DNA of 64,000 nt from a virus, in the IMG/VR virus record IMGVR_UViG_3300028394_000044, positions 98,300 through 162,299 of that record. One strand, given 5' to 3'. Below, piece by piece: positions 17,520 through 42,506 of the stretch. Each line of letters begins with the position of its first letter. Positions within the stretch are counted from its first letter, which is position 1. A program made the position numbers and the translations under genes. The notes beneath the pieces are model-generated. The model made no database searches, was not told where the DNA came from, and worked only from the letters and a program-made list of their open reading frames with translations.

Positions 17520-17539
17520 ATTTTTAAGGAGTGAATTAT

Positions 17540-17920: not shown

Positions 17921-17921
17921 T

Positions 17922-18485: not shown

Positions 18486-18488
18486 TTT

Positions 18489-18578: not shown

Positions 18579-18584
18579 AAAAAT

Positions 18585-18660
18585 GTAGGTGTGACCCGAA
18601 AGGCTAGGGAACAGATTGCAAATCTGTTTTATGCAGGTTCGATTCCTGTCACCTACTCCA
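18585..18660 (+). tRNA. tRNA-Cys (GCA)
   Basis: Acceptor GTAGGTG/CACCTAC, loop TTGCAAA, T-loop TTCGATT, encoded CCA with U73 as expected for Cys. Confidence 0.95.
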
Positions 18661-18692
18661 GTTGTTAAAAAACAACAACATGCAAATAGATG

Positions 18693-18720
18693 TTGACAAA
18701 ACCTCTGGTTGTGTTATACT
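18693..18720 (+). promoter_or_regulatory. Promoter of the second tRNA unit
   Basis: TTGACA (18693-18698), 16-nt spacer, TATACT (18715-18720). Confidence 0.8.
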
Positions 18721-18745
18721 CTATTCATGAGTTGAGAAATCAACA

Positions 18746-18768
18746 TGTTCTTTAAAAATTTGTAGAGT
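18746..18768 (+). promoter_or_regulatory. boxA-like tRNA leader element (copy 2)
   Basis: Exact second copy of the 22-nt block at 17286-17307, here preceded by T to give TGTTCTTTAAAAA, 10 of 12 bases matching the rrn boxA consensus quoted above. Precedes tRNA-Glu by 7 nt. Confidence 0.55.
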
Positions 18769-18775
18769 TTAATTT

Positions 18776-18850
18776 ACTCCGTTCGTCTATCGGTTAGGAC
18801 ACCGGGTTTTCAACCCGATAAGACCAGTTCGATTCTGGTACGGAGTACCA
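18776..18850 (+). tRNA. tRNA-Glu (TTC)
   Basis: ACTCCGT/ACGGAGT acceptor, anticodon loop TTTTCAA, TTCGATT T-loop, encoded CCA. Confidence 0.95.
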
Positions 18851-18960
18851 TATTAAAACATATTACAGGTTGGGCAGTATTCGCGGTGCTGCTATTTGGG
18901 TATTATGAACTAGATAATTACTAGCATCGATACTAAGATACGTAGTATGTTTTAATATGG
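18848..18960 (+). ncRNA. Hairpin-closed spacer between tRNA-Glu and tRNA-Ile
   Basis: No ORF. The ends (18848-18866 and 18942-18960) pair over 19 bp with one G-U wobble, CCATATTAAAACATATTAC against its complement, starting at the tRNA's own CCA. Smaller hairpins lie inside. Could guide tRNA processing or be an unrecognised RNA. Confidence 0.4.
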
Positions 18961-18967
18961 TAGAAAT

Positions 18968-19042
18968 GCCTTGGTAGCTTAATGGTAAAGCAGGCGACTC
19001 ATAATCGCTTGAGTGGGAGTTCAATTCTCTCTCAAGGCACCA
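18968..19042 (+). tRNA. tRNA-Ile2 (CAT, probable lysidine-modified)
   Basis: Anticodon arm GCGACTCATAATCGC matches E. coli tRNA-Ile2, whose C34 is changed to lysidine to read AUA, rather than elongator tRNA-Met. Encoded CCA. AUA-reading would suit this AT-rich genome. Confidence 0.8.
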
Positions 19043-19048
19043 AGATTC

Positions 19049-19123
19049 GGGGGTATAACTTAACGGCTAAAGTATCTGGCTTTTAACCAGGTAATCCGAG
19101 TTCGATTCTCGGTACCCCTACCA
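19049..19123 (+). tRNA. tRNA-Lys (TTT)
   Basis: Anticodon loop CTTTTAA, acceptor with G1-U72 wobble, TTCGATT T-loop, encoded CCA. Confidence 0.95.
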
Positions 19124-19134
19124 AAACAATTTTA

Positions 19135-19216
19135 GGAGATGATGCTCTAATGGTAGGGCAGCGGACTGTAACTCCGTGGCTTCGGCAAGTAGGTTCGATT
19201 CCTACCATCTCCACCA
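19135..19216 (+). tRNA. tRNA-Tyr (GTA)
   Basis: Bacterial type II tRNA-Tyr with a long variable arm (GGCTTCGGC hairpin), loop CTGTAAC, encoded CCA. Confidence 0.95.
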
Positions 19217-19289
19217 AGCCGAACAGTGTAGCAATACACTCAATGTTTGTTAGTTTTAATGGGTACGTATAGAAACTATCACAAATTTA
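19217..19289 (+). other. Structured spacer
   Basis: 73 nt with an AGTGTA-GCAA-TACACT hairpin and a second small ATAG-AAA-CTAT dyad. No gene seen. Confidence 0.4.
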
Positions 19290-19364
19290 GGTGCGTTCAT
19301 ATAATGGTCATTATCTCGGATTGTCTATCCGAAGACGGGGGTTCGATTCCCCCACGCATCGCCA
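19290..19364 (+). tRNA. tRNA-Asp (GTC)
   Basis: Acceptor GGTGCGT/ACGCATC, loop TTGTCTA, G73 as expected, encoded CCA. Confidence 0.95.
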
Positions 19365-19369
19365 ATTTT

Positions 19370-19443
19370 GTGGCAAGGAAAGTAAAAGGAGAATGGGCAA
19401 CGAAAAGGATTTGAAGCCTTTAGTGGATACCTCACCTGCCATA
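19370..19443 (+). other. Possible degenerate tRNA-like spacer
   Basis: Ends pair as TGGCA/TGCCA and an AAAGG...CCTTT hairpin lies in the middle, but there is no T-loop or CCA. Could be a decayed tRNA. Confidence 0.2.
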
Positions 19444-19455
19444 AATTTTTATTAT

Positions 19456-19531
19456 TCCCCAATAGCTCAGTTGGTAGAGCGTTCCGCTGTTAACGGAAAT
19501 GTCGGTGGGTCGGAGCCATCTTGGGGAGCCA
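19456..19531 (+). tRNA. tRNA-Asn (GTT), atypical T-loop
   Basis: Acceptor TCCCCAA/TTGGGGA, loop CTGTTAA, encoded CCA. T-stem GGTGG/CCATC closes a GTCGGAG loop that lacks T54 and A58, so function or folding may be altered. Confidence 0.85.
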
Positions 19532-19754
19532 AATTTTGTAAGTGTCAGCAAGTGAAGTCACGCTATTCAGTATTCTTCAAAGGTACTGTATAGTAGAAGG
19601 TTTTGGGTTCAACTCCCACCCGCGGGGAACTGCGGAGGTCTGTAAAGGAGACAAACTGGATGAATCCCAAGTGACGTACCGAGTCCCGGCCGGCTTAATT
19701 ACACGGGTGAATGGTTGCTATAACGATGGGGCAACAACTTACAAATTCAACATT
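19532..19754 (+). other. Structured gene-free spacer
   Basis: 223 nt without a credible gene. Visible elements: a 9-bp CTAT(T)CAGTA/TACTG(T)ATAG hairpin, a TGGG-TTCAACT-CCCA element like an isolated tRNA T-arm near 19600, CCGC...GCGG, and GTCT...AGAC hairpins. May hold a decayed tRNA or an unknown RNA. Confidence 0.35.
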
Positions 19755-19830
19755 GCCCCGGTGACGGAATGGTATACGTGTTGGTCTTAGAAACCAAATT
19801 TTAGGAGTTCGAGTCTCCTCTGGGGCACCA
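19755..19830 (+). tRNA. tRNA-Leu (TAG), short variable region
   Basis: Acceptor GCCCCGG/CTGGGGC, loop CTTAGAA, TTCGAGT T-loop, encoded CCA. Only about 5 nt lie between anticodon stem and T-stem, unlike the long arm normal for tRNA-Leu. Confidence 0.9.
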
Positions 19831-19885
19831 AATATCGCCGTGACTGGTGGCGTACAATGAGATAAGTAATCAGTTAACCAAATTT

Positions 19886-19960
19886 GGGCTGTTAGTGATA
19901 ATGGTAGCACAGTGGCTTTGCAAGCCTCGGGCAGGAGTTCGATTCTCCTACGGTCCACCA
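19886..19960 (+). tRNA. tRNA-Ala (TGC)
   Basis: Loop TTTGCAA, acceptor GGGCTGT/ACGGTCC with G-U pairs, encoded CCA. Confidence 0.92.
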
Positions 19961-19966
19961 AATTTA

Positions 19967-20041
19967 GCTCTTAAAGCATTGCTGGCGATGCACGGGTCTT
20001 GTAAGCCTGAGAATACAGTTCGATTCTGTATGAGAGCACCA
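19967..20041 (+). tRNA. tRNA-Thr (TGT)
   Basis: Loop CTTGTAA, acceptor GCTCTTA/TGAGAGC, encoded CCA. Confidence 0.94.
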
Positions 20042-20048
20042 AGTTTTT

Positions 20049-20122
20049 CTCCGATTAGTGAAATGGCATCACCCGTGGTTTGGGACCATGAAGCGCAAGT
20101 TCGATTCTTGCATCGGAGACCA
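20049..20122 (+). tRNA. tRNA-Pro (TGG)
   Basis: Loop TTTGGGA, acceptor CTCCGAT/ATCGGAG, TTCGATT T-loop, encoded CCA. Confidence 0.94.
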
Positions 20123-20130
20123 GTTTTTAT

Positions 20131-20201
20131 TGCGGGTATTCAGGGTATCGGTAAGTCTCATAAGCTCTACCTAGTGGGTTCGAATCCCACACCCGCTACC
20201 A
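20131..20201 (+). tRNA. tRNA-Met-like (CAT), initiator-type acceptor, short D region
   Basis: Acceptor TGCGGGT/ACCCGCT leaves positions 1 and 72 unpaired (U-U) above GCGGG/CCCGC, as in bacterial initiator tRNA. Loop CTCATAA, TTCGAAT T-loop, encoded CCA. Only 71 nt: the D arm is shortened, and the anticodon stem has a bulge and lacks the initiator GGG/CCC pairs. Confidence 0.7.
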
Positions 20202-20206
20202 GTTTT

Positions 20207-20281
20207 GGTGATATAGTTCAATGGTAGAACACCACCTTCATACGGTGACTGTTGGGAGTTCAAGTCTCTCTATCACCACCA
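20207..20281 (+). tRNA. tRNA-Met (CAT), elongator
   Basis: Loop TTCATAC, acceptor GGTGATA/TATCACC, TTCAAGT T-loop, encoded CCA. A regular cloverleaf, unlike its neighbour. Confidence 0.9.
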
Positions 20282-20286
20282 AATAT

Positions 20287-20364
20287 GCGTCCTTAGTTCA
20301 ACTGGATAGAGCACCGGGCTACGAACCCGTGAGGTTGGGAGTTCGAATCTCTCAGGACGCACCA
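20287..20364 (+). tRNA. tRNA-Arg (ACG)
   Basis: Loop CTACGAA, acceptor GCGTCCT/AGGACGC, encoded CCA. A34 would need deamination to inosine. Confidence 0.95.
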
Positions 20365-20593
20365 AGACCCGTCAGAGTAACGTCTGGCTACTGTGACACG
20401 CAGGAAGTGAAGTGAGTTCGTTACTCAAGTGTGGTACTACTCTTACCGAAGTAGCGTTGGCAATACGAGAATTCTTTTTGGTTGGGAAGCGGGTGGAAGG
20501 TGTGTGTTACAAGGCGTTGAACCGAACGGGGAGCCGAAGTAACAACGGTGCGAGCTGACACACTAAATTACCGCCGCAGAAAGAAAGCATTAT
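20365..20593 (+). ncRNA. Structured non-coding spacer, candidate RNA gene
   Basis: 229 nt with no credible ORF. Nested helices in the second half: GTGTGT (20500-20505) with ACACAC (20558-20563), GTTAC (20506-20510) with GTAAC (20539-20543), GGC/GCC and GTT/AAC inside. The first half has a GTCAGA/TCTGGC hairpin and TGAGT...ACTCA. Matches no RNA family I recognise. Confidence 0.4.
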
Positions 20594-20669
20594 ACCCTAA
20601 TAGCTCAGCGGTAGCAGCACCGTCTTGATAAGGCGTAGGTCGGTGGTTCGAATCCACCTTAGGGTACCA
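20594..20669 (+). tRNA. tRNA-Ile (GAT)
   Basis: Acceptor ACCCTAA/TTAGGGT, loop TTGATAA, TTCGAAT T-loop, encoded CCA. Confidence 0.94.
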
Positions 20670-20701
20670 GATTGCACAGTAGTTCTCAAGACTGATGTTA
20701 T

Positions 20702-20709
20702 TATAAATA
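20702..20709 (+). promoter_or_regulatory. T4-type late promoter box
   Basis: Exact TATAAATA 18 nt upstream of the HNH gene. T4 homing endonuclease genes are often tied to late promoters, so the position is meaningful. Confidence 0.65.
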
Positions 20710-20726
20710 TCCATAAAGGAGATTGT

Positions 20727-21077
20727 ATGAAGACAATTACATCAGGAAAAAACTACCAAGGATTATTAAAGTTTAATAAGAGTAGAAAATTTCCAACAGA
20801 AGATATTCTTGTTGAAAACTCAAGTTATGCTAGACATAACTTAAAAAGAAGAATATTGGAAGAAAAATTAATTCAATATAAATGTGCATGTTGTAATCTT
20901 GATAATGAATGGAATGATAAGCCAATTGTTTTACAATTGGATCATATTAACGGTGTAAACAATGACCATAGATTGGAAAATTTAAGGTTTCTTTGTCCAA
21001 ATTGCCATTCACAACAAGACACATATGCAGCTAAAAATAGGTTTAATCCGAAAAGAAAACCTAAAAAATATGTATAA
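20727..21077 (+). CDS. HNH endonuclease (free-standing, probably homing)
   Basis: 116 residues. Zinc and catalytic layout: CACCNLDNEW...LQLDHINGVNNDHRLENLRFLCPNCHSQ, with two CxxC pairs and the H-N-N/H core. A C-terminal basic tail (NPKRKPKKYV) may bind DNA. AAAGGAGA site sets the start. Between tRNA-Ile and tRNA-Trp; typical of mobile endonucleases in phage tRNA arrays. Confidence 0.88.
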   Translation: MKTITSGKNYQGLLKFNKSRKFPTEDILVENSSYARHNLKRRILEEKLIQYKCACCNLDNEWNDKPIVLQLDHINGVNNDHRLENLRFLCPNCHSQQDTYAAKNRFNPKRKPKKYV

Positions 21078-21078
21078 A

Positions 21079-21152
21079 ATCTCCGTAGTGTAATGGCAGC
21101 ATAAGGATCTCCAAAATCTTTGGTGGGAGTTCGAATCTCTCCGGGGATGCCA
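21079..21152 (+). tRNA. tRNA-Trp (CCA)
   Basis: Loop CTCCAAA, acceptor ATCTCCG/CGGGGAT, G73, encoded CCA. Starts 1 nt after the HNH stop. Confidence 0.95.
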
Positions 21153-21172
21153 AGTTTTTAAAGGTTATCAAT

Positions 21173-21661
21173 ATGAAAAAATTCGATATAAACGAAGTCA
21201 AAGAATTCCTTGCAAAACAAGGACCAAACACCAAAGTATATCTTGGTGCTGACTCTGAAAGAATCAGAGTGAATGAAGTTTGGTATGCTGACTACGCTTT
21301 AGCTGTTGTAGTTCATATTGATGGATGTCATGGCTGTAAGATTTTTGGTTTTGTTGACCGTGAATTAGATTACGACCATAAGAAAAGTAAACCTGCTATG
21401 CGTCTAATGACAGAAGTGTATAAGGTTTCGGAATTGTTTCAATCATTACAAGATGTGTTGGAAGATTATCATGTTGAAGTCCATTTGGATTTAAATAAAT
21501 CAGATGAGTTCGGTAGTTCTTGTGTTGTTCAGCAAGCGATTGGTTATATCAAAGGTACATGTAACATGACACCAATGGTTAAACCTGATGCGCCTGCGGC
21601 TTCATTCTGTGCAGATCGTTTAAAACGGATTTTAGCAGAACAAGAATTAGCGACTACATAA
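21173..21661 (+). CDS. RNase H-like fold protein (DUF458/YkuK family)
   Basis: 162 residues. VYLGADSERI (first acidic strand), YALAVVVHI, an HLDLN segment and SSCVVQQAIGYIKG...PDAPAASFCADRL give the DUF458 pattern, an RNase H-like fold with probable nuclease activity. Located inside the tRNA array, so an RNA substrate is plausible. Confidence 0.7.
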   Translation: MKKFDINEVKEFLAKQGPNTKVYLGADSERIRVNEVWYADYALAVVVHIDGCHGCKIFGFVDRELDYDHKKSKPAMRLMTEVYKVSELFQSLQDVLEDYHVEVHLDLNKSDEFGSSCVVQQAIGYIKGTCNMTPMVKPDAPAASFCADRLKRILAEQELATT

Positions 21662-21667
21662 TATTAT

Positions 21668-21741
21668 GCGGGATTAGTTTAGTGGTAAAACGTCATCCTT
21701 CCAAGTTGAAGTTGCGAGTTCGATTCTCGCATCCCGCTCCA
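21668..21741 (+). tRNA. tRNA-Gly (TCC)
   Basis: Loop CTTCCAA, acceptor GCGGGAT/ATCCCGC, U73, encoded CCA. Confidence 0.94.
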
Positions 21742-21821
21742 TATACAAACACATTTTGATGCCTATAAGATTGTAGATTTGATCGCCTACGATACGGTGC
21801 GTGATGAGTGTGTTTCTATAT
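21741..21821 (+). ncRNA. Hairpin-closed spacer between the two tRNA-Gly genes
   Basis: Ends pair as ATATACAAACACA/TGTGTTTCTATAT with one C-C mismatch; an inner ATTGTAG/CTACGAT hairpin is visible. Same design as the spacer at 18848-18960. Confidence 0.4.
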
Positions 21822-21895
21822 GCGGGTATGATGTAAAGGTAGCCTGTGACCTTGCCAAGGTTAGTGTGAGAGTTCGATTCTCTCTACCCGCTCCA
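21822..21895 (+). tRNA. tRNA-Gly (GCC)
   Basis: Loop TTGCCAA, acceptor GCGGGTA/TACCCGC, U73, encoded CCA. Confidence 0.94.
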
Positions 21896-21916
21896 ATCAA
21901 TTAAAGGTGGTTCATT

Positions 21917-22525
21917 ATGGTTATTGTTCCTGTTTTTGCAACAAATATTTTTATGACAGAGTTAAAACCTGAAGACTATGAATTGGTCCAGGAAGAATTG
22001 CAAAGAGTGTATGATGATAATACACAAAATAAATTATTTAATGATCCGTGGAATAACGGACGTATGAGATTAAGTCACAATGCATTTGAAGGTGATATTA
22101 TAAAAAAATATGACCTCAAAAATTTCAAACGAGTTCTGACTGATGCTGTTGCTTTCTTAAATGAAGATGGTAAAGTTAGAGCGTTTAATGTTGTGAATTC
22201 TTGGATGACAAGCCTGAAAAAAGGCATGTATGCTCATAATCATCAACATATTGCCCCGTATGGTTCGCATATTTCTGGTGTCTATTACTTTAAAACGGCA
22301 GAAGACGATTCACCAATTGTTTTTGAGAATCCAAATTTGTCTAATGTTTGTTTTAGTCCAGCATTAGGTTCTGAAGAAACACTATCATGTAAACCTATTC
22401 AAGGACACTTGCTGATGTTCCCATCTTGGTTGAGACACTATATTGAAACTCAACTTGATGACCGAGAAAGAGTTAGTGTTTCTTTTACTTTAGGTCTAGA
22501 AAATCCATATCTCGATAAATGGTAA
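21917..22525 (+). CDS. 2-oxoglutarate/Fe(II)-dependent oxygenase-like protein
   Basis: 202 residues. An AHNHQHIAPYGSHISGVYYF segment (metal histidines and the SGVYY strand) and a distal FPSWLRHYIETQ...RVSVSF (third histidine and 2OG-binding Arg) match the putative 2OG-Fe(II) oxygenase family common in T4-like cyanophages. Substrate unknown. Lies in the tRNA array. Confidence 0.8.
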   Translation: MVIVPVFATNIFMTELKPEDYELVQEELQRVYDDNTQNKLFNDPWNNGRMRLSHNAFEGDIIKKYDLKNFKRVLTDAVAFLNEDGKVRAFNVVNSWMTSLKKGMYAHNHQHIAPYGSHISGVYYFKTAEDDSPIVFENPNLSNVCFSPALGSEETLSCKPIQGHLLMFPSWLRHYIETQLDDRERVSVSFTLGLENPYLDKW

Positions 22526-22529
22526 TTAT

Positions 22530-22604
22530 GGAGTTGTTAGTTTAGTGGTAAAACCGCGGGTTGTGATTCCGCTATCACGGGTTCGATTCCCGTACTTCTC
22601 CCCA
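22530..22604 (+). tRNA. tRNA-His (GTG)
   Basis: Loop TTGTGAT; G-1 opposite C73 as required for His. The acceptor has two U-U mismatches (positions 4-69, 5-68). Encoded CCA. Confidence 0.9.
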
Positions 22605-22607
22605 AGC

Positions 22608-22682
22608 GCCTTGTTAACTCAGCGGTAGAGTGTCTCCCTTACAAGGAGAAGGTCGGCGGTTCGATCCCGTCACAAGGTACCA
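22608..22682 (+). tRNA. tRNA-Val (TAC)
   Basis: Loop CTTACAA, acceptor GCCTTGT/ACAAGGT with G1-U72, encoded CCA. Confidence 0.94.
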
Positions 22683-22685
22683 ATT

Positions 22686-22760
22686 TGCTCCCATAGTACA
22701 GTGATAGTACACGCCCTTGGTACGGGTGAGACCTGAGTTTGATTCTCGGTGAGAGCACCA
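22686..22760 (+). tRNA. tRNA-Thr (GGT)
   Basis: Loop TTGGTAC, acceptor GCTCCCA/TGAGAGC with one mismatch, T-loop TTTGATT, encoded CCA. Confidence 0.92.
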
Positions 22761-22765
22761 ATTTA

Positions 22766-22841
22766 GCAACTTTAGCTGATGTGGTCATAGCGGTGGTCTG
22801 AAGAACCATTGAAGTAGGTTCGATTCCTACAGGTTGCACCA
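22766..22841 (+). tRNA. tRNA-Phe (GAA)
   Basis: Loop CTGAAGA, acceptor GCAACTT/AGGTTGC, encoded CCA. Confidence 0.94.
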
Positions 22842-22848
22842 AAATTCT

Positions 22849-22924
22849 GCGGATATAGCGCAAAGGTAGAGGCAAGGGACTTAAAATCCCTCAAGTCTGG
22901 GTTCGAATCCCAGTATCCGCACCA
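22849..22924 (+). tRNA. tRNA-Leu (TAA), short variable region
   Basis: Loop CTTAAAA, acceptor GCGGATA/TATCCGC, encoded CCA. Variable region about 5 nt. Confidence 0.92.
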
Positions 22925-22927
22925 TAT

Positions 22928-23004
22928 GCCCTTGTAGCCCAATTGGTAGAGGCAATGGATTCAAAATCCATTCAGTGTCGGTTCGAATCTGACCAAGGGT
23001 ACCA
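22928..23004 (+). tRNA. tRNA-Leu (CAA), short variable region
   Basis: Loop TTCAAAA, acceptor GCCCTTG/CAAGGGT with G1-U72, encoded CCA. Variable region about 5 nt, as in the other two leucine tRNAs here. Confidence 0.92.
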
Positions 23005-23010
23005 CACAAT

Positions 23011-23085
23011 GTCTCTATAGTTCAACGGACAGAATAGGGACCTCCTAAGTCCCGGATACAGGTTCGATTCCTGTTGGAGACACCA
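23011..23085 (+). tRNA. tRNA-Arg (CCT)
   Basis: Loop CTCCTAA on a perfect GGGAC/GTCCC stem, acceptor GTCTCTA/TGGAGAC, encoded CCA. Confidence 0.95.
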
Positions 23086-23108
23086 AATGGTAAACATGTA
23101 AATAATAT

Positions 23109-23127
23109 ATTAACTCTACAAATTTTT
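23109..23127 (-). repeat. Inverted partial copy of the tRNA leader block
   Basis: TTAACTCTACAAATTTTTT is the complement of the AAAAATTTGTAGAGT part of the leader blocks at 17286 and 18747. It lies just before the last tRNA, so copies bracket the array in opposite orientation. Confidence 0.5.
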
Positions 23128-23130
23128 TAT

Positions 23131-23205
23131 CTGGCGTTCGTTCAATGGATAGGACAAGATTCTTCTAAAGTCTTTATAGAGGTTCGATTCCTCTACGCCG
23201 GACCA
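23131..23205 (+). tRNA. tRNA-Arg (TCT)
   Basis: Loop CTTCTAA, acceptor CTGGCGT/ACGCCGG, encoded CCA. Its 3' end overlaps, on the opposite strand, the last codons of the racemase gene. Last tRNA of the array. Confidence 0.93.
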
Positions 23206-23894
23206 CCAATATAATATTTTTTTAAAACGGCATCAACTAAACTATCGATACTGTTTACGATTTGCACGCCATTACATTCGACTTCTCTAATCGCTAATGG
23301 TATCTCTGTGCAACCTAATACAATAGATTTTGCACCACGCTCTATTAAACTTTGTATTACAATCATCAATATTGAATGTGCTTGATCTATATTTCCACCC
23401 TTGATTAAATCTATTGCATGTTGAACTAGTGTGTCCATTTCTACTATAGAAGGCACAATACAATCCCATCCAAATTTATTCAACATGTATTGATACAACC
23501 CGAATTCGATTGTGCTTTGGGTTCCTATAATTCCTATGGTTGTATTACTGATGCCTATGGAATTTAATGTATCTGCAACACTATCTACAATGTGTATAAT
23601 GGGAACCTCTAATTTAATTAGTTCCTGATACCAAAAATGTGCGGTGTTACATGGTATGACTATTAAATCACAACCTGTAAATTTCAATGCTTGTACACCT
23701 TCTATCAAGTAGGGTAATGGCTCATCATTGCCTTTTCGCATACTTGTGCTACGGTCTGGAATTCTTGGTTCATTCCAAAGAACAAATGGAATATGATCTT
23801 GATCTTTATTAGCAGGAGTTTTTTTAATTAATCTAGTTATAAACTCTGCACTTGCTGCTGGACCCATTCCACCCAAAACTCCCAACTTTTTCAT
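23193..23894 (-). CDS. Aspartate/glutamate racemase family protein
   Basis: 233 residues. N-terminal KLGVLGGMGPAASAEF and the two catalytic-cysteine motifs PCNTAHFWY and LGCTEIPLAI are the hallmarks of cofactor-independent aspartate racemases, which interconvert L- and D-aspartate (or Glu). Start at 23894 chosen at MKKLGVLGGMG; a longer frame adds a non-conserved extension. Last gene of a four-gene minus-strand operon with an acidic amino-acid transporter. Stop lies inside the complement of tRNA-Arg. Confidence 0.9.
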   Translation of the reverse strand: MKKLGVLGGMGPAASAEFITRLIKKTPANKDQDHIPFVLWNEPRIPDRSTSMRKGNDEPLPYLIEGVQALKFTGCDLIVIPCNTAHFWYQELIKLEVPIIHIVDSVADTLNSIGISNTTIGIIGTQSTIEFGLYQYMLNKFGWDCIVPSIVEMDTLVQHAIDLIKGGNIDQAHSILMIVIQSLIERGAKSIVLGCTEIPLAIREVECNGVQIVNSIDSLVDAVLKKYYIGGPA

Positions 23895-23955
23895 AACAGT
23901 ACAACCAGTAAAATAATTATTATGATGACACAGAATATAACAGAAGGAAGTCTCA

Positions 23956-24564
23956 TCATTTTTTAAATAATAAACTACTAGCAACATGCATCACAGCTTG
24001 CTCATTAGCAACCTCATCTGGGTCAGGTTTTGATTTCCATCCAACTGAAATTTGTCCAATAAATGTACCGGGTTCCGCAGGTACACTTATACGACACATA
24101 TATTTTACGCCTCTTTCAACATAAACGAATCCCATAAAACTTTGAGGTGTTAGGTAATCTTGACATGGTACTTTTCCTGACATCATTGAAATCACATCAT
24201 TATTATTGTCGTAATTTTTAGTCAGTAGACCAACATCTGTGCCATAGTAATCTTTTTCAATTCCACCGCTGCGAGTAGTAAAATAAACTAGCTTGCGCGT
24301 GTTTAATATTGTATTGACTTGAAATACTGCAATCAATTCCGCTTGGCTATATTTCAATATAAAATTTGAGGCTTTTTCATACTCTCCGTTCATATGCGGT
24401 AATGCTTTTTCGGCACGATAACTTGCCATAAATGCATCTTTTTCGGAATATAAAAACCAACCACCGAATCCAAATACACATAAAATTATAACCGCAAATA
24501 GGCGAAATGGACTCTCGCCTATCCAAGTCAATAAACTAAGAAGTATTTCCTTAGCTTTGTCCAC
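23956..24564 (-). CDS. Membrane-anchored protein of the amino-acid operon
   Basis: 202 residues. One transmembrane segment (LFAVIILCVFGFGGWFLY, about residues 22-39) then a ~160-residue soluble domain with two cysteines (VPCQDYL, KYMCRISVP) that may form a disulfide, and a GTFIGQISVGW strand. Topology suggests a periplasmic or cytoplasmic sensor-like domain, GAF/Cache-like at best guess. Overlaps the transporter gene by 14 nt, so probably functions with it. Confidence 0.65.
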   Translation of the reverse strand: MDKAKEILLSLLTWIGESPFRLFAVIILCVFGFGGWFLYSEKDAFMASYRAEKALPHMNGEYEKASNFILKYSQAELIAVFQVNTILNTRKLVYFTTRSGGIEKDYYGTDVGLLTKNYDNNNDVISMMSGKVPCQDYLTPQSFMGFVYVERGVKYMCRISVPAEPGTFIGQISVGWKSKPDPDEVANEQAVMHVASSLLFKK

Positions 24565-25825
24565 CGATAGCTACCTCTTTATCACAGACAAATGCTGTTA
24601 CTGCAATATTACCGTGTACATGACTTGCTGTGCGAATCATATCCATTAATGGATCAACTGCAATTAGCAAAACTAATACAGCTTCACTTGGTAGTTTTAA
24701 CAAGTCACAAACAACTGCCACGGTTGCAACAGTAAGGATACCTGTTGTACCTGCACTTGCCAAACCAGCCAATATACTACCAAACAGTACTACTAACAAT
24801 CCCACAGCACCTAATGGTGAATCATAAATGTTAGCAATAAACACTGTAGCAATCGCATAATAAACAATACTGCCAATTCTGTTGACTGTAAAACTCAGCG
24901 GAACAGTTAGTTCAACACCACCTTTGTCAAAATGCAATCTGTGTAATGCTTCCTGTGCGTATGGAATACAAGCTAATGAACTGCGTGAACTAATAGCAAC
25001 AATCAATGTTTCTTTAGTTTCTTTAATAACAGTCATCAAACTCAACCCACTACGCATCCATATTACCACAGTACCTGCAATAACCACTAATACTCCACCA
25101 ACAAACTGTTGAAATACAAAATCAAACATGGTCATAAAGATGCCCACCCCAACTTTGCCAACTTGACTGCTAATCATTGCTAACAATGCGAATGGTAAGA
25201 AGTAGTTTAGGAATTTAAAGATACTGATACTTGCCTGTTGAACACTCTTTAATACTTCAACCAACATACGTTGACCTTCTGTTTGTAAATGCCCTAATGC
25301 AACACCAAAAATTAAACAGAAGATAACAATCTTCAAACTCTCACCATTGTTTAGTGTGTTGAAAATGTTTTCTGGAATAAATTTCTCTGCCATCTTACCT
25401 GCACTGATTGGAGGTGATGTTGGCATTGGCTCATGTAACGTGATGTTTAAATCAGTTCCTGTGTCCTTGTTGTTCACTAGTACACCAAATTCTGTTTTCT
25501 TTTGCGGAGTCATTTCTGTGCCTGTAACCAACACAGTTCCTACACCAATGACCGCGGCTAAGAACATACTTCCTATAAATCCAATAATAATTTTACGTAT
25601 CAGTGTTTCACTACCTTCTTTTTGTAATAGTCCTATAATACCAACTAGAATAGTTGCCAACAAGAATGGTAGCACAACTACTTTTAATAAACTGATGTAG
25701 ATACTACCAATGCTGTCAAGGTTCATACTAAACTCAGGGGTATAAACTCCACCAAGAATACCCAGTACAATTGAACCAAGAATAGTCCACGGACTAGTTA
25801 AGAAGGTTTTCAAGTGGGAGATCAT
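24551..25825 (-). CDS. Dicarboxylate/amino-acid:cation symporter (DAACS, glutamate/aspartate type)
   Basis: 424 residues with about eight hydrophobic segments. The HP1 serine-rich loop reads ISSRSSLACIP; HP2/TM7 region SILAGLASAGTTGI; TM8 has DPLMDMIRTASHVHGN, matching the D...D-x-x-R-T...V-x-G-(D/N) signature of the GltPh/GltP family. The retained Arg and second Asp are the residues that, in this family, bind the substrate side-chain carboxylate and amino group, arguing for acidic amino acids. Two family positions differ (Asn to His, final Asp to Asn). Overlaps both neighbours, so strictly co-translated. Confidence 0.92.
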   Translation of the reverse strand: MISHLKTFLTSPWTILGSIVLGILGGVYTPEFSMNLDSIGSIYISLLKVVVLPFLLATILVGIIGLLQKEGSETLIRKIIIGFIGSMFLAAVIGVGTVLVTGTEMTPQKKTEFGVLVNNKDTGTDLNITLHEPMPTSPPISAGKMAEKFIPENIFNTLNNGESLKIVIFCLIFGVALGHLQTEGQRMLVEVLKSVQQASISIFKFLNYFLPFALLAMISSQVGKVGVGIFMTMFDFVFQQFVGGVLVVIAGTVVIWMRSGLSLMTVIKETKETLIVAISSRSSLACIPYAQEALHRLHFDKGGVELTVPLSFTVNRIGSIVYYAIATVFIANIYDSPLGAVGLLVVLFGSILAGLASAGTTGILTVATVAVVCDLLKLPSEAVLVLLIAVDPLMDMIRTASHVHGNIAVTAFVCDKEVAIGGQS

Positions 25826-26649
25826 TTTTTATCCTTTTTCTCTGCTTTATATCTGTCCATCAACTTTTTAGTGTCAATGTTGTTATATTCATTTCTAATA
25901 ACATAATTAACCATACTTAGCAATTGAATTGCTTTTGGATTAACTGCCACTGCAATATAGTCCACACTGTCAGAAATTGTAATTGTCTTGGTGCTGATTG
26001 CAGCATCTGGCTTTTCAAAACTAATTTTCTTAATTTCAAACTCGTCACGGTAAGCAGCAGCAATATCTCCACGTGTGACTCTATCAATGATTACATCCCA
26101 CTTTTCTTCAGGAAGAAATGTTGCATTAGGAAAATTAATTCGTGCAAATGTATCATAGCTGGAGTTTTTGATGAAACTTATTTTTCCATTGAAATCACGA
26201 ATCACTTGATATGTTTCTTTACCCTGACTGTTTTGACTGAGCCATAACCTGTTGATAATTAAACTCTGTCTTAGTTTGATATACGGCTCACTAAATCTAA
26301 CAACTTGTAAACGCGGACCAGTTACGGATAATTTACTAACCGCAATGTCTGCTCTACCGTCTCTAACTTGTTCCACAACCTCAGCAAAACTTTCTGCATC
26401 TCGTCTAAACTGAACAGGAACTCCAAGTAATACACCAATTCGTTGTGCAATTTCAACGTCAAGACCATGAATGTTATCTCCTTCTCCTGAAAAGAAAGGA
26501 GGAACATCTTTTTTGGTCATTGCCACAATAAGAACATTGGCTTTCTTAATTGCAGCGATATCTGGTGGCAAAGGAATAGTTGATGTGGGTAATTGTGCAT
26601 ACGTAGCCGCAATAAACAACAAAGCCAACAAAGCAAATAATTTTTTCAT
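25822..26649 (-). CDS. Periplasmic amino-acid-binding protein (solute-binding family 3)
   Basis: 275 residues. Signal peptide (MKKLFALLALLFIAATYA). Then NVLIVAMTKKDVPPF, GLDVEIAQRIGVLLGVPVQF, VVEQVRDGRADIAVSKLSVTGPRLQVVRFSEPYI and a C-terminal DYIAVAVNP, the SBP_bac_3 pattern for polar amino acids. The protein normally feeds an ABC transporter; none is visible, and its partner here is a symporter gene overlapping by 4 nt. First gene of the operon. Confidence 0.9.
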   Translation of the reverse strand: MKKLFALLALLFIAATYAQLPTSTIPLPPDIAAIKKANVLIVAMTKKDVPPFFSGEGDNIHGLDVEIAQRIGVLLGVPVQFRRDAESFAEVVEQVRDGRADIAVSKLSVTGPRLQVVRFSEPYIKLRQSLIINRLWLSQNSQGKETYQVIRDFNGKISFIKNSSYDTFARINFPNATFLPEEKWDVIIDRVTRGDIAAAYRDEFEIKKISFEKPDAAISTKTITISDSVDYIAVAVNPKAIQLLSMVNYVIRNEYNNIDTKKLMDRYKAEKKDKK

Positions 26650-31015: not shown

Positions 31016-31636
31016 ATGATTAAACATATACCGTATCGCACAGCAAAAATTCGTAGTAGAGAAGACCTTGTGACAGAAAAAGAAATGATTTTTAGTATAC
31101 AAGACCGCATGGAAAATGTTTTCTTGGACAACCATATTCACTTTTTGTATGGTGATATTGTAGAAGAAAACGTTCAGAGAGCTATCGAATGGATCATTTA
31201 TGAAAATTCCATGGAATGTAGTAAAGAAACTGTTCTCCAATTGCATGTAAATTCTATTGGCGGTGATCTTTATCAAGCACTCGGTTTAATTGATGTTATG
31301 AGACTAAGTAAAATTCCTATTCGTACCATAGGACTCGGTGCAGTTATGTCCGCAGGCTTTCTTATTTTTGCATCGGGCACTCCTGGACAAAGATATATTA
31401 CTAAAAATTGTGGTATCATGTGTCACCAATATTCAGACACATATGAAGGTAAACACCACGATTTAAAATCTTTTACTAAAGAAGCTGAATTAACCAATAG
31501 GCGTATGCTTCAAATTCTTCAAGATGCCAGTGGCATGACAGCTAAAGCCGTCAAAACTAAATTATTATCACCCAGTGACGTTTGGTTAACTGCGGAAGAA
31601 TTAGTAAGTTTAGGTGTTGCGGATCAAATTCTTTAA
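31016..31636 (+). CDS. clpP: ClpP-like serine protease (S14 family)
   Basis: 206 residues. LHVNSIGGDLYQALGLIDVMR (oxyanion strand), nucleophile Ser in VMSAGFLIF and catalytic His in IMCHQYSDTYEG fit the Clp protease proteolytic subunit. Related genes occur in T4-like phages. It may act with host ClpX or in virion assembly; a virus tmRNA is also present (39257). Confidence 0.85.
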   Translation: MIKHIPYRTAKIRSREDLVTEKEMIFSIQDRMENVFLDNHIHFLYGDIVEENVQRAIEWIIYENSMECSKETVLQLHVNSIGGDLYQALGLIDVMRLSKIPIRTIGLGAVMSAGFLIFASGTPGQRYITKNCGIMCHQYSDTYEGKHHDLKSFTKEAELTNRRMLQILQDASGMTAKAVKTKLLSPSDVWLTAEELVSLGVADQIL

Positions 31637-36015: not shown

Positions 36016-36683
36016 TGTTCGAATTCGTAAAACTACCCGAGTTAGATTTCGATATGAAAGCCGTGACTACATACTTGGGTAGAGTTTACGTCACACCTTC
36101 TGGATTTAAATATCCTTCTGTAACAACGGTGCTATCACCATACGGAAAGAAGGCTCTATTTGAATGGAGAGAACGTGTGGGTGCGGAAGAAGCTAATCGT
36201 GTGGCTGCCAAGGCATCACGCCGTGGAACTGCATTGCATAAAGTTTGTGAAAAATACTTATTGAATGAAATGTCTAGCACAAAACTTGCTAGTATGCTTC
36301 CAACAACAAAAGAGCTATTCTACAAAATAAAACCACATATTGATACCAGTATTGGTAAAATTTATTCTCTTGAACAAGCATTGTATTCTGATGGTCTACG
36401 TATTGCTGGTCGTGTGGATTGTATTGCTGAATGGAATGGAAAACTATCCATCATCGACTTTAAATCTTCTACCCGACAAAAAGAAAAAAATGGAATAGCC
36501 AACTATTTTATGCAGTGTACAGCATATGCAGTTATGTTTGAAGAGTTGACTGGTAAGCCTATTGAACAAATTGTGGTTTTAATTGGCACAGAAAACGGAC
36601 CAGGTCAGGTGTTCATTGAGGAAAAGACTAAATATTATGAGGAACTGAAGAGATATATCTCAAACCATTACTCAAAGCTATGA
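36015..36683 (+). CDS. PD-(D/E)XK nuclease (RecB/Cas4-like)
   Basis: 222 residues. RGTALHKVCEKYL (motif I), GRVDCIAEWNGKLSIIDFKSS (D...D-x-K catalytic core) and QCTAYAVMFE (motif Q/Y) define the RecB-type exonuclease fold. Start shares a base with the phoH stop. Likely DNA recombination or host DNA breakdown. Confidence 0.88.
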   Translation: MFEFVKLPELDFDMKAVTTYLGRVYVTPSGFKYPSVTTVLSPYGKKALFEWRERVGAEEANRVAAKASRRGTALHKVCEKYLLNEMSSTKLASMLPTTKELFYKIKPHIDTSIGKIYSLEQALYSDGLRIAGRVDCIAEWNGKLSIIDFKSSTRQKEKNGIANYFMQCTAYAVMFEELTGKPIEQIVVLIGTENGPGQVFIEEKTKYYEELKRYISNHYSKL

Positions 36684-37462
36684 TAGAAAATAAAAAATAT
36701 CGCTCTATCTTTATTTCTGATGTACACCTTGGAACTAAAGATAGTCAAGCAGAAAAGTTAAATAATTTTCTTAAACACAATTCTTGTGATACTTTGTATC
36801 TTATAGGTGACATTATTGATGCATGGCGCATACAGCAAAATAAATGGCGATGGAAACAAAGTCATACCAATGTTGTCCGTAGAGTATTAGGTCATGCTAA
36901 ACGTGGGACAAAAGTTATATACATAGCAGGCAATCATGATGAGTTTTTGAGACCAATGATACCGTATGGTTTTAGTTTTGGTTTAGTAGAAATACACAAT
37001 CAGATAGAACACATAGGTGCTGACGGTAAACACTATCTCGTTGTGCATGGTGACCTATTTGATGGAATTACAAGACTAGCGCCATGGTTAAGTTTTTTAG
37101 GAGACAAAGCATATGATTTCATTTTATCTCTTAATAGCAAATTCAATTGGGTACGCCATCGCATGGGTTTTGGGTACTTTAGTCTTAGCCAATATCTTAA
37201 AAGAAAAGTAAAAAAAGCAGTAGACTTCATTTTTCATTTTGAAAAAAATTTAGCGGCTTATTGTAAGAAGCGTGGATTTGATGGTGTCATTTGTGGTCAT
37301 ATTCATCATGCTGAAATTAAAGAAATTGATGGAGTTGTTTACATGAATGACGGCGATTGGGTAGAGTCCTGCACAGCATTAGTTGAACATCATGATGGTC
37401 GTTGGGAAATCATAACTTGGACTAAAGATAATGACAAAGACAATATTAATAATAACGGATAA
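36680..37462 (+). CDS. plcP: PlcP-like phospholipase C (COG2908 metallophosphoesterase)
   Basis: 260 residues. FISDVHLGTKDSQAE, LIGDIIDAWR, AGNHDEF, VVHGDLFD and CGHIHHAEI, plus the distinctive YMNDGDWVESCTALVEHHDG end, match the UDP-diacylglucosamine-pyrophosphatase-like group that includes PlcP, which cuts phospholipids to diacylglycerol under phosphate stress. The adjoining glycosyltransferase makes PlcP the better reading than LpxH. ATG overlaps the nuclease stop. Confidence 0.8.
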   Translation: MIENKKYRSIFISDVHLGTKDSQAEKLNNFLKHNSCDTLYLIGDIIDAWRIQQNKWRWKQSHTNVVRRVLGHAKRGTKVIYIAGNHDEFLRPMIPYGFSFGLVEIHNQIEHIGADGKHYLVVHGDLFDGITRLAPWLSFLGDKAYDFILSLNSKFNWVRHRMGFGYFSLSQYLKRKVKKAVDFIFHFEKNLAAYCKKRGFDGVICGHIHHAEIKEIDGVVYMNDGDWVESCTALVEHHDGRWEIITWTKDNDKDNINNNG

Positions 37463-38450
37463 CTTACCGGATCAAATTAATGGTGTGGTCACAACATATC
37501 AAAATATTGAGGCTTGTGCGATTCTGGATGGTTATAAGTTTGTGGTGTTGCATCCCGGGAGGTTCAGCTACATTGATTGCCCTCGCTACAACGAAGTCAA
37601 GATTGCCTATCCCCGGAACTTGGGCAAGAAGATTAAGGAGATCAATCCGGATTATATCCATATCGCCACAGAAGGTCCTTTGGGTTTGTGGGCTAGAAAG
37701 TATTTGTCATTATATAATATTAGGCACAATACCGCTTATCATACTAAGTTTCCTGAAGGGTTAAAAAAGCTGTTTGGCATTCCAGAATTTATAACTTGGA
37801 AATTTGTTAAGTGGTTTCACAAACATAGTGGAAAAGTTTTAACCACAACTGATAGTATGGTTAAGGAATTACAAGCACACGGTTTTGAAGGTGAAGTTGT
37901 TCCTTGGACACGTGGTGTTGACCGTGAAATTTTTAAACCTGACCTTAGAGAAGACACAACTGCTAAGTATCTTTTATGTGTTTCCCGTGTCAGTAAAGAA
38001 AAAAATCTAGAAGCATTTTTTGAGTTAGACTATCCTGGTTATCAAAAAATTATGGTGGGCGATGGTCCTATGCTTGAAACTTATAAGAAGAAATATCCAG
38101 AAGTAACATTTACAGGATTTAAGACAGGTATAAATTTGGCACGATACTATGCAAATGCAGAAGTATTTGTTTTCCCTAGCCGTTGGGAAACATTTGGACT
38201 TGTTATGATAGAAGCAATGGCTTGTGGAACTCCTGTTGCGGCTTATCCTTGTCAAGGACCAGAAGATGTAATTGAACAAGGTGTAACAGGATTTATGCAT
38301 ACAGATTTAAAGATTGCAGTAACGAATGCGCTAAATATGGATCGACAAAAAGTTTTAGAAGGTAGCAAACGCTGGACTTGGGAAGCCGCATGGCAAATAT
38401 TTAAAAATAATCTTGTCTCTGTCACATCACTGTCACACAATTTATCATAA
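37431..38450 (+). CDS. agt: Family 4 glycosyltransferase (Agt-like diacylglycerol glycosyltransferase)
   Basis: 339 residues, GT-B fold. N-terminal ITDNLPDQINGVVTTY, HIATEGPLGLWAR, AYHTKFPE, and the nucleotide-sugar site LLCVSRVSKEKNLEAF, VGDGPML, FPSRWETFGLVMIEAMACGTPV. This resembles the Agt enzymes that add sugars to diacylglycerol in bacterial lipid remodelling. Overlaps plcP by 32 nt. Confidence 0.8.
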   Translation: MTKTILIITDNLPDQINGVVTTYQNIEACAILDGYKFVVLHPGRFSYIDCPRYNEVKIAYPRNLGKKIKEINPDYIHIATEGPLGLWARKYLSLYNIRHNTAYHTKFPEGLKKLFGIPEFITWKFVKWFHKHSGKVLTTTDSMVKELQAHGFEGEVVPWTRGVDREIFKPDLREDTTAKYLLCVSRVSKEKNLEAFFELDYPGYQKIMVGDGPMLETYKKKYPEVTFTGFKTGINLARYYANAEVFVFPSRWETFGLVMIEAMACGTPVAAYPCQGPEDVIEQGVTGFMHTDLKIAVTNALNMDRQKVLEGSKRWTWEAAWQIFKNNLVSVTSLSHNLS

Positions 38451-39220: not shown

Positions 39221-39249
39221 TTGACAAATTGGTCAAATAAATATATAAT
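39221..39249 (+). promoter_or_regulatory. Consensus promoter of the tmRNA
   Basis: TTGACA (39221-39226), 17-nt spacer, TATAAT (39244-39249), perfect consensus directly after the terminator. Confidence 0.9.
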
Positions 39250-39256
39250 GTAAGTT

Positions 39257-39607
39257 ATTGCTGTATGAAGCGATGTAAAATAAGTTCAAGACGCGGGGGC
39301 AGTGCCCGCCAGGTCCACCATAAAATACATTGGAGAACATAGGCAGACCTATGGGGTCCTGAGCAAAAACTCAGGAGCGTGGTTTATCGTAAAACGCTAG
39401 TGTATTTTATAATGGGCCTGACACAGGATCGATTGGGCAAAGAGTAACAAAGTGGACAGCACGGGAAAGCAGAACCTGTAGGATTGGGGTAACTCGATCA
39501 TAGAAGCAAAAAAAGTAAATGCAAACGACTCACGTTTCTTGATGGTAGCGTAAGCACCATCGGAGTTTTGCAAGTTGAACTTAGCAACAGAATCAACTTG
39601 CTTTTTT
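39257..39607 (+). ncRNA. ssrA: Two-piece (circularly permuted) tmRNA
   Basis: Acceptor piece first (about 39257-39320), ending CAGGTCCACCA; coding piece from 39413. P1: GGGCCTG (39413-39419) pairs with CAGGTCC (39310-39316). P2: TAAGTTCAA (39281-39289) pairs with TTGAACTTA (39575-39583), 9/9. The tag frame (39521-39553) reads ANDSRFLMVA then TAA, with the stop inside a GATGGT...ACCATC hairpin as in bacterial tmRNA. The excised loop (39321-39412) is closed by TAAAATACA/TGTATTTTA. The T-loop (GGCAGTG) is atypical. Rescues stalled ribosomes and tags proteins. Transcription start inferred. Confidence 0.87.
39570..39607 (+). terminator. Terminator at the end of the tmRNA
   Basis: GCAAGTTGA (39570-39578), 14-nt loop, TCAACTTGC (39593-39601), six T. 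It overlaps the P2 strand, so hairpin and P2 are alternatives. Confidence 0.85.
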
Positions 39608-39622: not shown

Positions 39623-40066
39623 ATGAAAAAATTAATTATCGCTATTGCAGCATTTACAATTGCATCTTTTGCATCTGCTATTGAAATTGATGTGTCCAAA
39701 GCTCACGATTTTAAAGCAAAGGCCGATGGTGTACGAGTTGAAGCACAAGTTGATGTATTCAAAGTACCGGTAACGGCATCTTATACTACGATTGATAAGA
39801 AATATAATCGTTATGCAGTTGGCGCAGAATATGGTGTTGCTAAAATTGGACCTGTTGCTCTTGCAGTAACCGGTAGTGTTGTTTATCAAGATACATATCT
39901 TTCAACTAGTAAAGATGGATATGGTTTAACCGCTGGCGCAATTGCAACACTTCCGCTTGTAAAAAATATTAGTTTATTCGCAAGCACTGAAGTATTCGCT
40001 GGCCAGAAACGTATTAATGCATTTAATGGTAACACCGGAACTATTGGTCTAACGGCCAAGTTCTAA
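39623..40066 (+). CDS. Exported beta-barrel-like outer membrane protein
   Basis: 147 residues. Signal peptide (MKKLIIAIAAFTIASFASA), then alternating strands and a terminal aromatic (TIGLTAKF), as in small outer-membrane barrels. AGGAGA ribosome-binding site. It may alter the host surface, for example receptor masking; inference. Confidence 0.7.
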   Translation: MKKLIIAIAAFTIASFASAIEIDVSKAHDFKAKADGVRVEAQVDVFKVPVTASYTTIDKKYNRYAVGAEYGVAKIGPVALAVTGSVVYQDTYLSTSKDGYGLTAGAIATLPLVKNISLFASTEVFAGQKRINAFNGNTGTIGLTAKF

Positions 40067-41364: not shown

Positions 41365-42506
41365 GCAAAAATATAGATAGTCTTTTAGCCAGTCTAGGGG
41401 TATCTAGGCCAATTAGAACAATTAGAACGGTTGCTCGCGCAAGCCGTAGATCGAAAAAACAGTTTAAATCTTGGACATACGATTCGAGTGAAATTAATAA
41501 TAAACTTATGAATAACGAAAAAATCTTTATTGGCGCATCCGATTATGGAGATTACATCTTTTCACAATTGATGGACCTCCGTACAACAAATGAAAAATCT
41601 ACATTCAACCGTGAGGTAAAAATGTTGGGAAACAGAAATGTTTGGCAAACATTTATTGAATCTGATTTTCAAGATGAACATCTTATTGAATTTAATGAAT
41701 CGACTGGCATCATCATTACAAATGAAGAAAACTTCATTCGGTATGATGTAAATTCAAATTCTATTACAGCAAGACTTTATGGTGATAAAGAATTTGTAGA
41801 GAAATTTTCCGAATACTTGTTGAATAAATTTGAAGAAGTTAAATCTTATATTGAATGGGTTTATTCAAGTGATGGTAATTCTGTAAATGTTCCTTTGAAC
41901 ACCGAAAGACTTCCTCTGGATGAAATGTATCCATTTTTAGGTACAGAGAAGTTGACCGAATACTATGACCGCTACCTTGCATCAAATGCAAATATTTTAC
42001 TATTGATTGGACCACCAGGAACAGGAAAAACTACTTTTATTCGTGGTTTACTTGCACATAGTAATTCCTCTGCAATGGTTACATATGATGCAGCCATTCT
42101 AGAAAAAGACTACTTATTTGCTCGTTTTATTGAAGATGAAACTGGTGTAATGGTGCTGGAAGACTCTGATAACTTTCTAAAGGCTCGGAGTGATGGTAAT
42201 ACTATGATGCATCGTTTCCTGAACGTTGGAGACGGTTTGGTGACTACTAAAGGAAAAAAACTAATCTTCTCTACAAATCTTCCATCTATTCGTGATGTTG
42301 ATCCTGCATTAATTCGACCTGGTCGTTGTTTTGATGTATTATCGTTTGACCAATTGAATGGTGAACAGGCAACTAAACTAGCCGAAAAACTTGGTGTTTC
42401 ATATGAAACAAAAAATTCAGGCAAGTATAGCATTGCTGAAATTTTCAACAAAAAACTTGATGCCGATAATCCAAGAAAATTCGGTAGCAAAATGGGATTT
42501 ATTTAA
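41361..42506 (+). CDS. AAA+ ATPase
   Basis: 381 residues. An N-terminal ~190 residues of unknown fold, then Walker A GPPGTGKTT, Walker B VMVLEDSD, sensor 1 IFSTN and an arginine-finger DPALIRPGR. Common in T4-like phages near gp32/gp59, role not established. Start at 41361, inside the end of the previous gene. Confidence 0.85.
   Translation: MSKNIDSLLASLGVSRPIRTIRTVARASRRSKKQFKSWTYDSSEINNKLMNNEKIFIGASDYGDYIFSQLMDLRTTNEKSTFNREVKMLGNRNVWQTFIESDFQDEHLIEFNESTGIIITNEENFIRYDVNSNSITARLYGDKEFVEKFSEYLLNKFEEVKSYIEWVYSSDGNSVNVPLNTERLPLDEMYPFLGTEKLTEYYDRYLASNANILLLIGPPGTGKTTFIRGLLAHSNSSAMVTYDAAILEKDYLFARFIEDETGVMVLEDSDNFLKARSDGNTMMHRFLNVGDGLVTTKGKKLIFSTNLPSIRDVDPALIRPGRCFDVLSFDQLNGEQATKLAEKLGVSYETKNSGKYSIAEIFNKKLDADNPRKFGSKMGFI

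What the first reader, a model, noticed from the sequence alone, without database searches (positions are those of the whole stretch)
39257..39607. Virus-encoded two-piece (permuted) tmRNA with tag ANDSRFLMVA
Acceptor piece lies before the coding piece. P1 (7 bp, one G-U) and P2 (9/9) between separated pieces are visible, plus CCA, a tag frame with stop in a hairpin, a hairpin-closed excised loop, a perfect promoter and a terminator. Permuted tmRNAs are known from alphaproteobacteria, some betaproteobacteria and cyanobacteria; I do not know of one in a T4-like phage. The tag ends LMVA rather than the usual ALAA, which could change protease choice.
Basis: partly seen in the sequence, partly recalled or inferred. 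Interest (0 to 1): 0.93.

Follow-up and report, generated by a model that had tools for sequence, protein, structure and literature searches.

The report
Phage-encoded two-piece tmRNA, odd tag
A T4-like phage carries its own split rescue RNA (tmRNA) for stalled ribosomes, a kind of gene already known in related phages; what looks new is its degradation tag, whose LMVA/LMAA ending I found in dozens of viral sequences but in no bacterial tmRNA.

Summary
Window 39257-39607 encodes a permuted (two-piece) tmRNA: 92.6 bits against Rfam RF04321 (cut-off 47), 73.7 against alpha_tmRNA (cut-off 50). ARAGORN misses this copy but calls relatives, two with the identical tag ANDSRFLMVA. Across 63 distinct viral genes, P1 pairs 7/7 in all, proximal P2 6/6 in 57, and a helix closes the excised segment in 60.

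The claimed novelty does not hold. The nearest isolated phages (Mosig, Melnitz, HTVC008M) all carry permuted tmRNAs; Melnitz's was published in 2022 with a survey counting 53 two-piece forms in phages. Of 45 related IMG/VR contigs, 29 have one.

The tag is the interesting part. LM[AV]A endings occur on 59 IMG/VR contigs with RF04321 matches, on many backbones (at least 7 label changes forced by supported branches). In 85,462 species genomes the pattern gave 4 hits, none a tmRNA. The ending resembles the known working degron LVA, so a protease switch is unproven.

The phage record lacks SmpB but encodes a ClpP-family protein 7.6 kb upstream, besides a separate gp21-type prohead protease. A virus-run tag-and-degrade route is possible, not shown. 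Nothing here was tested in cells.

The parts
39221..39249 (+). sigma-70-type promoter TTGACA-17-TATAAT, start of transcription expected near 39256
   Evidence: 12 of 12 consensus positions; use in vivo inferred
39257..39320 (+). acceptor piece: P2 3' strands, T arm (39293-39309), P1 3' strand (39310-39316), A73 and encoded CCA (39317-39320)
   Evidence: RF04321 alignment; P1 and P2 comparison; 5' end inferred from the promoter
39321..39413 (+). excised intervening segment, closed by helix 39321-39333/39397-39409, 4 nt before the coding piece
   Evidence: helix of at least 7 pairs in 60 of 63 viral genes in the same register; removal inferred
39414..39607 (+). coding piece: P1 5' strand (39414-39420), D-loop, P2 5' strands (39433-39438, 39456-39461), hairpins before the tag, tag, P5, 3' stem
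   Evidence: RF04321 and RF01849 alignments; folds
39521..39553 (+). tag reading frame ANDSRFLMVA plus stop TAA
   Evidence: sequence; same peptide with synonymous codons in divergent viral tmRNAs, called independently by ARAGORN in L409 and L416
39539..39563 (+). P5 hairpin TTGATGGT/ACCATCGG holding the tag end and stop codon
   Evidence: fold; relatives
39570..39607 (+). 3' stem GCAAGTTGA/TCAACTTGC plus T6: conserved 3' element that can also serve as a terminator
   Evidence: fold; stem present in relatives, T-run not always
31016..31636 (+). ClpP-family protein, 206 aa; possible but unproven partner
   Evidence: PF00574 101.3 bits; PDB ClpP matches; Ser, His and Asp columns conserved in relatives

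Best explanation
A functional, phage-encoded permuted two-piece tmRNA. One precursor is made from a strong host-type promoter. The helix that closes the intervening segment stacks next to P1, and host tRNA-processing enzymes free the CCA end at 39320 and the 5' end at 39414. The two pieces stay together through P1 and P2. Host AlaRS charges the RNA through the G3-U70 pair, host SmpB helps it onto stalled ribosomes, the ribosome resumes at GCA and adds ANDSRFLMVA, and the tagged peptide is released and degraded by host ClpXP or a similar protease. The phage probably keeps its own copy so that rescue continues while mRNAs are being cut and host RNA is lost. Shown by sequence: gene form, helices, tag frame, conservation in relatives. 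Inferred: transcription, processing, charging, tagging, degradation and benefit to the phage.
For: Full-length RF04321 match at about twice the cut-off. P1 7/7 in 63 of 63 distinct viral genes, 5.6% when strands are swapped between genes with different P1. Proximal P2 6/6 in 57 of 63 with changes on both sides. Excised-segment helix in 60 of 63, mean 10.2 pairs against 5.6 swapped and 4.1 shuffled. Relatives, including the same tag, are called as two-piece tmRNAs by ARAGORN. The gene is carried by the three nearest isolates and by 29 of 45 related contigs. Perfect promoter. No second tmRNA and no SmpB in the own record.
Against: No transcript or processing data. ARAGORN misses this copy. The P1 search demanded at least 6 of 7 pairs with GGG and TCC ends, so invariance of G3-U70 in the relatives is imposed by the search. 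The free-energy fold does not show P2. The host is unknown.
Confidence: 0.88

Rival explanations
1. The LM[AV]A ending retargets tagged proteins, away from host ClpXP or towards the phage's own ClpP-family protease, giving the virus a private tag-and-degrade (or tag-and-spare) route. This adds to the best explanation and does not replace the rescue role.
For: LM[AV]A tags on 59 IMG/VR contigs with RF04321 matches and in none of 85,462 species genomes as a tmRNA. The own record encodes ClpP and a separate gp21-type prohead protease. In 15 of 17 records with both genes, tmRNA and ClpP lie within 1.2-10.2 kb on one strand.
Against: ClpP also occurs with ALAA tags and in a record without a tmRNA match; the three isolates have the tmRNA but no ClpP. 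The genomes with both are related, so the closeness is not 15 independent cases. LVA, a similar ending, is degraded in E. coli (PMC3511798). No phage ClpX or ClpA was sought.
Confidence: 0.15
2. A decoy or inhibitor: the phage RNA is charged and competes with host tmRNA, and its tag is stable so that products are spared.
For: A tag-less tmRNA-like gene of phage DS6A was reported to inhibit the host tmRNA when expressed in E. coli (PMC11915505).
Against: This gene keeps a full tag frame, stop, P5 and P2, and the tag peptide recurs with synonymous codons, as expected if it is translated.
Confidence: 0.06
3. A decayed or passively captured host ssrA, or host DNA misplaced in the viral record.
For: ARAGORN misses the gene, and phages are known to carry ssrA fragments (discussed in PMC9004378).
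Against: All helices tested are intact, the promoter is perfect, and the gene recurs near phoH and an exonuclease gene in related phages. No bacterial tmRNA with this tag ending was found.
Confidence: 0.03

Closest known systems
Permuted tmRNAs of Methylophilales phage Melnitz (MZ577097), Pelagibacter phage Mosig (MT647606) and Pelagibacter phage HTVC008M (KC465899)
   Same: Permuted gene form above the RF04321 cut-off; T4-like Kyanoviridae phages that are the nearest isolates by baseplate wedge protein; similar place, downstream of phoH and a PD-(D/E)XK nuclease gene in Melnitz and HTVC008M
   Different: Tags ANDNYVPVDYALAA, GEDNFALAA and ANFNEYALAA, all ending ALAA; no ClpP in those genomes; Melnitz's gene is reported with a glutamine riboswitch (PMC9004378), while Rfam shows none here
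Permuted tmRNAs of Alphaproteobacteria (RF01849)
   Same: Same gene order, T-loop of GGCAGTG type, conserved GCAACAGAA near the 3' end
   Different: Tag of 10 residues ending LMVA; extra hairpins before the tag; the two alphaproteobacterial examples here have tags ending LAA
ANDERFALAA-type bacterial tags
   Same: Same length and nearly the same first six residues as the viral AND[ES]RFLM[AV]A tags
   Different: ALAA is replaced by LMAA or LMVA; the ALAA type was found in 9 of 299 sampled genomes of one proteobacterial phylum
Two close viral relatives: IMG/VR 3300027782_000156 (L041/L301) and 3300047560_001198 (L039/L416)
   Same: The first is nearly identical over the whole gene; the second shares the tag ANDSRFLMVA and the 3' part
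   Different: The first has LMAA (one base); the second has a different 5' half of the gene

Membership tests
Permuted (two-piece) tmRNA, RF04321 | Match to the covariance model above its curated cut-off | tested here: met
   92.6 bits, cut-off 47, full model length
Permuted (two-piece) tmRNA, RF04321 | Acceptor piece lies before the coding piece, with an intervening segment between | tested here: met
   39257-39320, then 39321-39413, then 39414-39607
Permuted (two-piece) tmRNA, RF04321 | Seven-pair P1 between the pieces, with G3-U70 for alanine, and CCA | tested here: met
   7/7 pairs with G39416-U39314; CCA at 39318-39320
Permuted (two-piece) tmRNA, RF04321 | P2 between the pieces | tested here: met
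   Proximal helix 6/6, covarying in 57 of 63 genes; distal 6-pair helix by inspection; not in the free-energy fold
Permuted (two-piece) tmRNA, RF04321 | Short tag frame with resume codon and stop in P5 | tested here: met
   GCA to TAA, 39521-39553; same peptide called by ARAGORN in L409 and L416
Permuted (two-piece) tmRNA, RF04321 | Processing of the transcript into two pieces | not testable with these tools
   Needs RNA end mapping
Permuted (two-piece) tmRNA, RF04321 | Charging, SmpB binding and tagging of stalled peptides | not testable with these tools
   Needs experiments; no SmpB gene in the viral record, so the host's would be used
Alpha-type permuted tmRNA, RF01849 | Match to the alpha model above cut-off | tested here: met
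   73.7 bits, cut-off 50
Usual bacterial tag ending (ALAA or similar) | Last four residues x-L-A-A | tested here: not met
   Ends LMVA; 28 of 63 distinct viral genes carry LM-type tags, many of them sought by that pattern
ClpP protease (PF00574), for 31016-31636 | Family match and conserved Ser, His and Asp columns | tested here: met
   101.3 bits, cut-off 20.2; columns conserved in relatives; activity and partner not tested

The most novel reading that the evidence does not exclude
A group of T4-like phages runs its own tag-and-degrade pathway: a viral two-piece tmRNA adds a tag ending LM[AV]A, not found in bacterial tmRNAs, and that ending gives tagged proteins a fate chosen by the virus, perhaps through the phage's own ClpP-family protease.
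Probability: 0.15. Interest if true: 0.8.

Novelty: new variant of a known kind. Interest (0 to 1): 0.42.

Why it matters
It shows that a two-piece tmRNA is a recurrent trait of this phage lineage and not an oddity. If the LM[AV]A ending is truly confined to viruses, viral tagging could be told apart from host tagging by mass spectrometry, which would make the open question of what phage tmRNAs do during infection directly testable.

Tried and rejected
- Nucleotide search of the gene in isolated phages: no match; the tag region alone and an LM-tag relative gave only weak chance matches.
- Strict ANDSRF pattern in species genomes: 0 hits. Looser LM[AV]A pattern: 4 hits, none a tmRNA.
- Host through the dicarboxylate symporter: best matches only 35% identical, so no host could be named.
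- Strict link between tag class and ClpP: rejected, ClpP occurs with both tag types and without a tmRNA match.
- ClpP as prohead protease (PHROGs' best match): less likely, because a gp21-type protease is present.
- Simple terminator scan found none; its loop limit is 8 and this loop is 14.
- Literature for LM tags: nothing in the held library. Sharkady and Williams 2004 is not held.
- One search aligned the ClpP with a placeholder string of no meaning; it is discarded and supports nothing.

Full report
Observation. The window is the last 64,000 bases of a 162,299-base virus record. At 39259-39553 (+) Rfam's permuted tmRNA model matches end to end with 92.6 bits against a cut-off of 47, and the alpha-type model with 73.7 against 50. 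ARAGORN, run on the whole window, finds 27 tRNAs but not this gene. One correction: P2 is two helices of six pairs, not one of nine.

Comparative test. I collected related viral loci by a motif scan, by protein neighbours and by tag patterns, and scored them with RF04321. Parsing gave 65 distinct genes, 63 of them viral; 24 loci did not fit the parser. P1 pairs 7/7 in all 63; strands swapped between genes with different P1 pair 7/7 in 5.6%. The parser demanded at least 6 of 7 pairs with GGG and TCC ends, so the invariance of G3-U70 in the relatives is imposed by the search; the changes at positions 4-7 are not. The proximal P2 helix pairs 6/6 in 57 of 63, with forms such as CAGGGC/GTTCTG, TTGGGT/ATTCAA and TCTGGT/ATCAGA; swapped strands reach 6/6 in 28%.

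Excised segment. In 60 of 63 genes it is closed by at least seven pairs, which as a rule start 0-2 nt after CCA and end 4-6 nt before the coding piece. The mean is 10.2 pairs, against 5.6 with flanks swapped and 4.1 with flanks shuffled. I do not claim this is new; the older two-piece tmRNA paper I looked for is not held.

Known or not. The nearest isolates by baseplate wedge protein are Pelagibacter phage Mosig, Methylophilales phage Melnitz and Pelagibacter phage HTVC008M, at 40-43% identity. All three carry a permuted tmRNA. It is annotated as SsrA in Mosig and Melnitz but not in HTVC008M. PMC9004378 (2022) describes the Melnitz gene and counts 53 two-piece forms among 133 distinct tmRNA structures in a phage genome database, 50 of them from marine or aquatic samples. 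Of 45 IMG/VR contigs chosen only by relatedness of PhoH or the baseplate protein, 29 carry one above cut-off, although many are fragments.

The tag. The nearest relative (IMG/VR 3300027782_000156, L041/L301) has ANDSRFLMAA, one base away (GCA to GTA). ANDSRFLMVA itself recurs in three more divergent genes, with GTA or GTG for Val and GCG or GCC for Ala. Among 27 LM[AV]A genes of standard length, the Phe, Arg, Ala and Val codons vary synonymously, while Met is fixed and Leu is nearly always TTG. RNA pairing in P5 may contribute to the conservation of TTGATGG; in L402, though, both sides of P5 differ while the peptide end is the same (by inspection). Most of these genes were found by a pattern that demands the amino acids, so this shows that the ending exists in different RNA contexts; it is not an unbiased measure of selection.

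Virus restriction. The pattern A-[N/K]-[D/E]-x-[R/S]-F-[L/F]-M-[A/V]-A gave 65 IMG/VR contigs. RF04321 is above cut-off on 59 of them; several of the rest are cut by a contig end. In 85,462 species genomes the pattern gave four hits. None lies in a tmRNA by ARAGORN or Rfam, and two of those genomes have permuted tmRNAs elsewhere with tags ending LAA. As a control, ANDxRFALAA-type tags were found in 9 of 299 sampled genomes of the phylum of the Mesorhizobium hit. Limits: the pattern is narrow, the set holds one genome per species, and uncultured hosts may be missing. No paper in the held library contains such a tag.

Spread. On a tree of the backbone without the tag and the 3' part, the LM label needs 13 changes, at least 7 forced by supported branches. 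The tag end has moved between backbones or arisen repeatedly. Among close relatives the tag and 3' part are nearly identical on differing 5' halves, which points to recombination within the gene.

Function. P1, G3-U70, CCA, tag and stop are intact, so rescue of stalled ribosomes with host SmpB is the most likely role (established tmRNA biology; not tested here). The viral record has no SmpB match. The ending VA recalls the LVA variant of the E. coli tag, which still drives degradation: half-life about 13 minutes against 8 for LAA at 37 degrees (PMC3511798). A protease switch is possible but not needed.

ClpP. The record encodes a 206-aa ClpP-family protein at 31016-31636, 7.6 kb upstream of the tmRNA, and separately a gp21-type prohead protease, so the ClpP need not serve the capsid. 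Of 17 records with both ClpP and tmRNA, 15 have them within 1.2-10.2 kb on the same strand, with ClpP upstream in some and downstream in others. These genomes are related, ClpP also occurs with ALAA tags and in a record without a tmRNA match, and the three isolates lack it. I keep a viral tag-and-degrade route as a hypothesis at about 0.15.

Verdict. Real and well supported by comparison, a member of a known kind, with a tag ending that appears new and, so far, viral only. No experiment was run, the host is unknown, and expression, processing and tagging are inferred.

Noticed in passing
31016-31636 (+): ClpP-family protein in a T4-like phage that also has a gp21-type prohead protease (record position 42023-42499, outside the window); nearest isolate homologue is in Synechococcus phage BUCT-ZZ01 at 43.6% identity.
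   Followed up: partly
17315-23205 (+): Cluster of 27 tRNA genes.
   Followed up: no
23193-26649 (-): Asp/Glu racemase family protein and sodium:dicarboxylate symporter family protein next to each other, followed by a protein that looks like a periplasmic amino-acid binding protein (inspection); possible auxiliary metabolic genes.
   Followed up: partly
36680-38450 (+): Calcineurin-like phosphoesterase followed by a group 1 glycosyltransferase, overlapping, between the exonuclease gene and the tmRNA.
   Followed up: no
39623-40066 (+): 147-aa protein with a signal-peptide-like start right after the tmRNA; no Pfam or PHROGs match.
   Followed up: no
L306 / KC465899.1 145161-145370: Pelagibacter phage HTVC008M carries a permuted tmRNA (tag ANFNEYALAA) that its record does not annotate.
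   Followed up: yes
L301, L329, L424, L428 and the window gene: ARAGORN misses these permuted tmRNAs although RF04321 finds them, so counts of phage tmRNAs based on ARAGORN alone may be low.
   Followed up: partly
G032 and G044 (320 and 345 kb IMG/VR contigs): Jumbo-size viral contigs also carry a permuted tmRNA and ClpP-family genes, here more than 100 kb apart.
   Followed up: no
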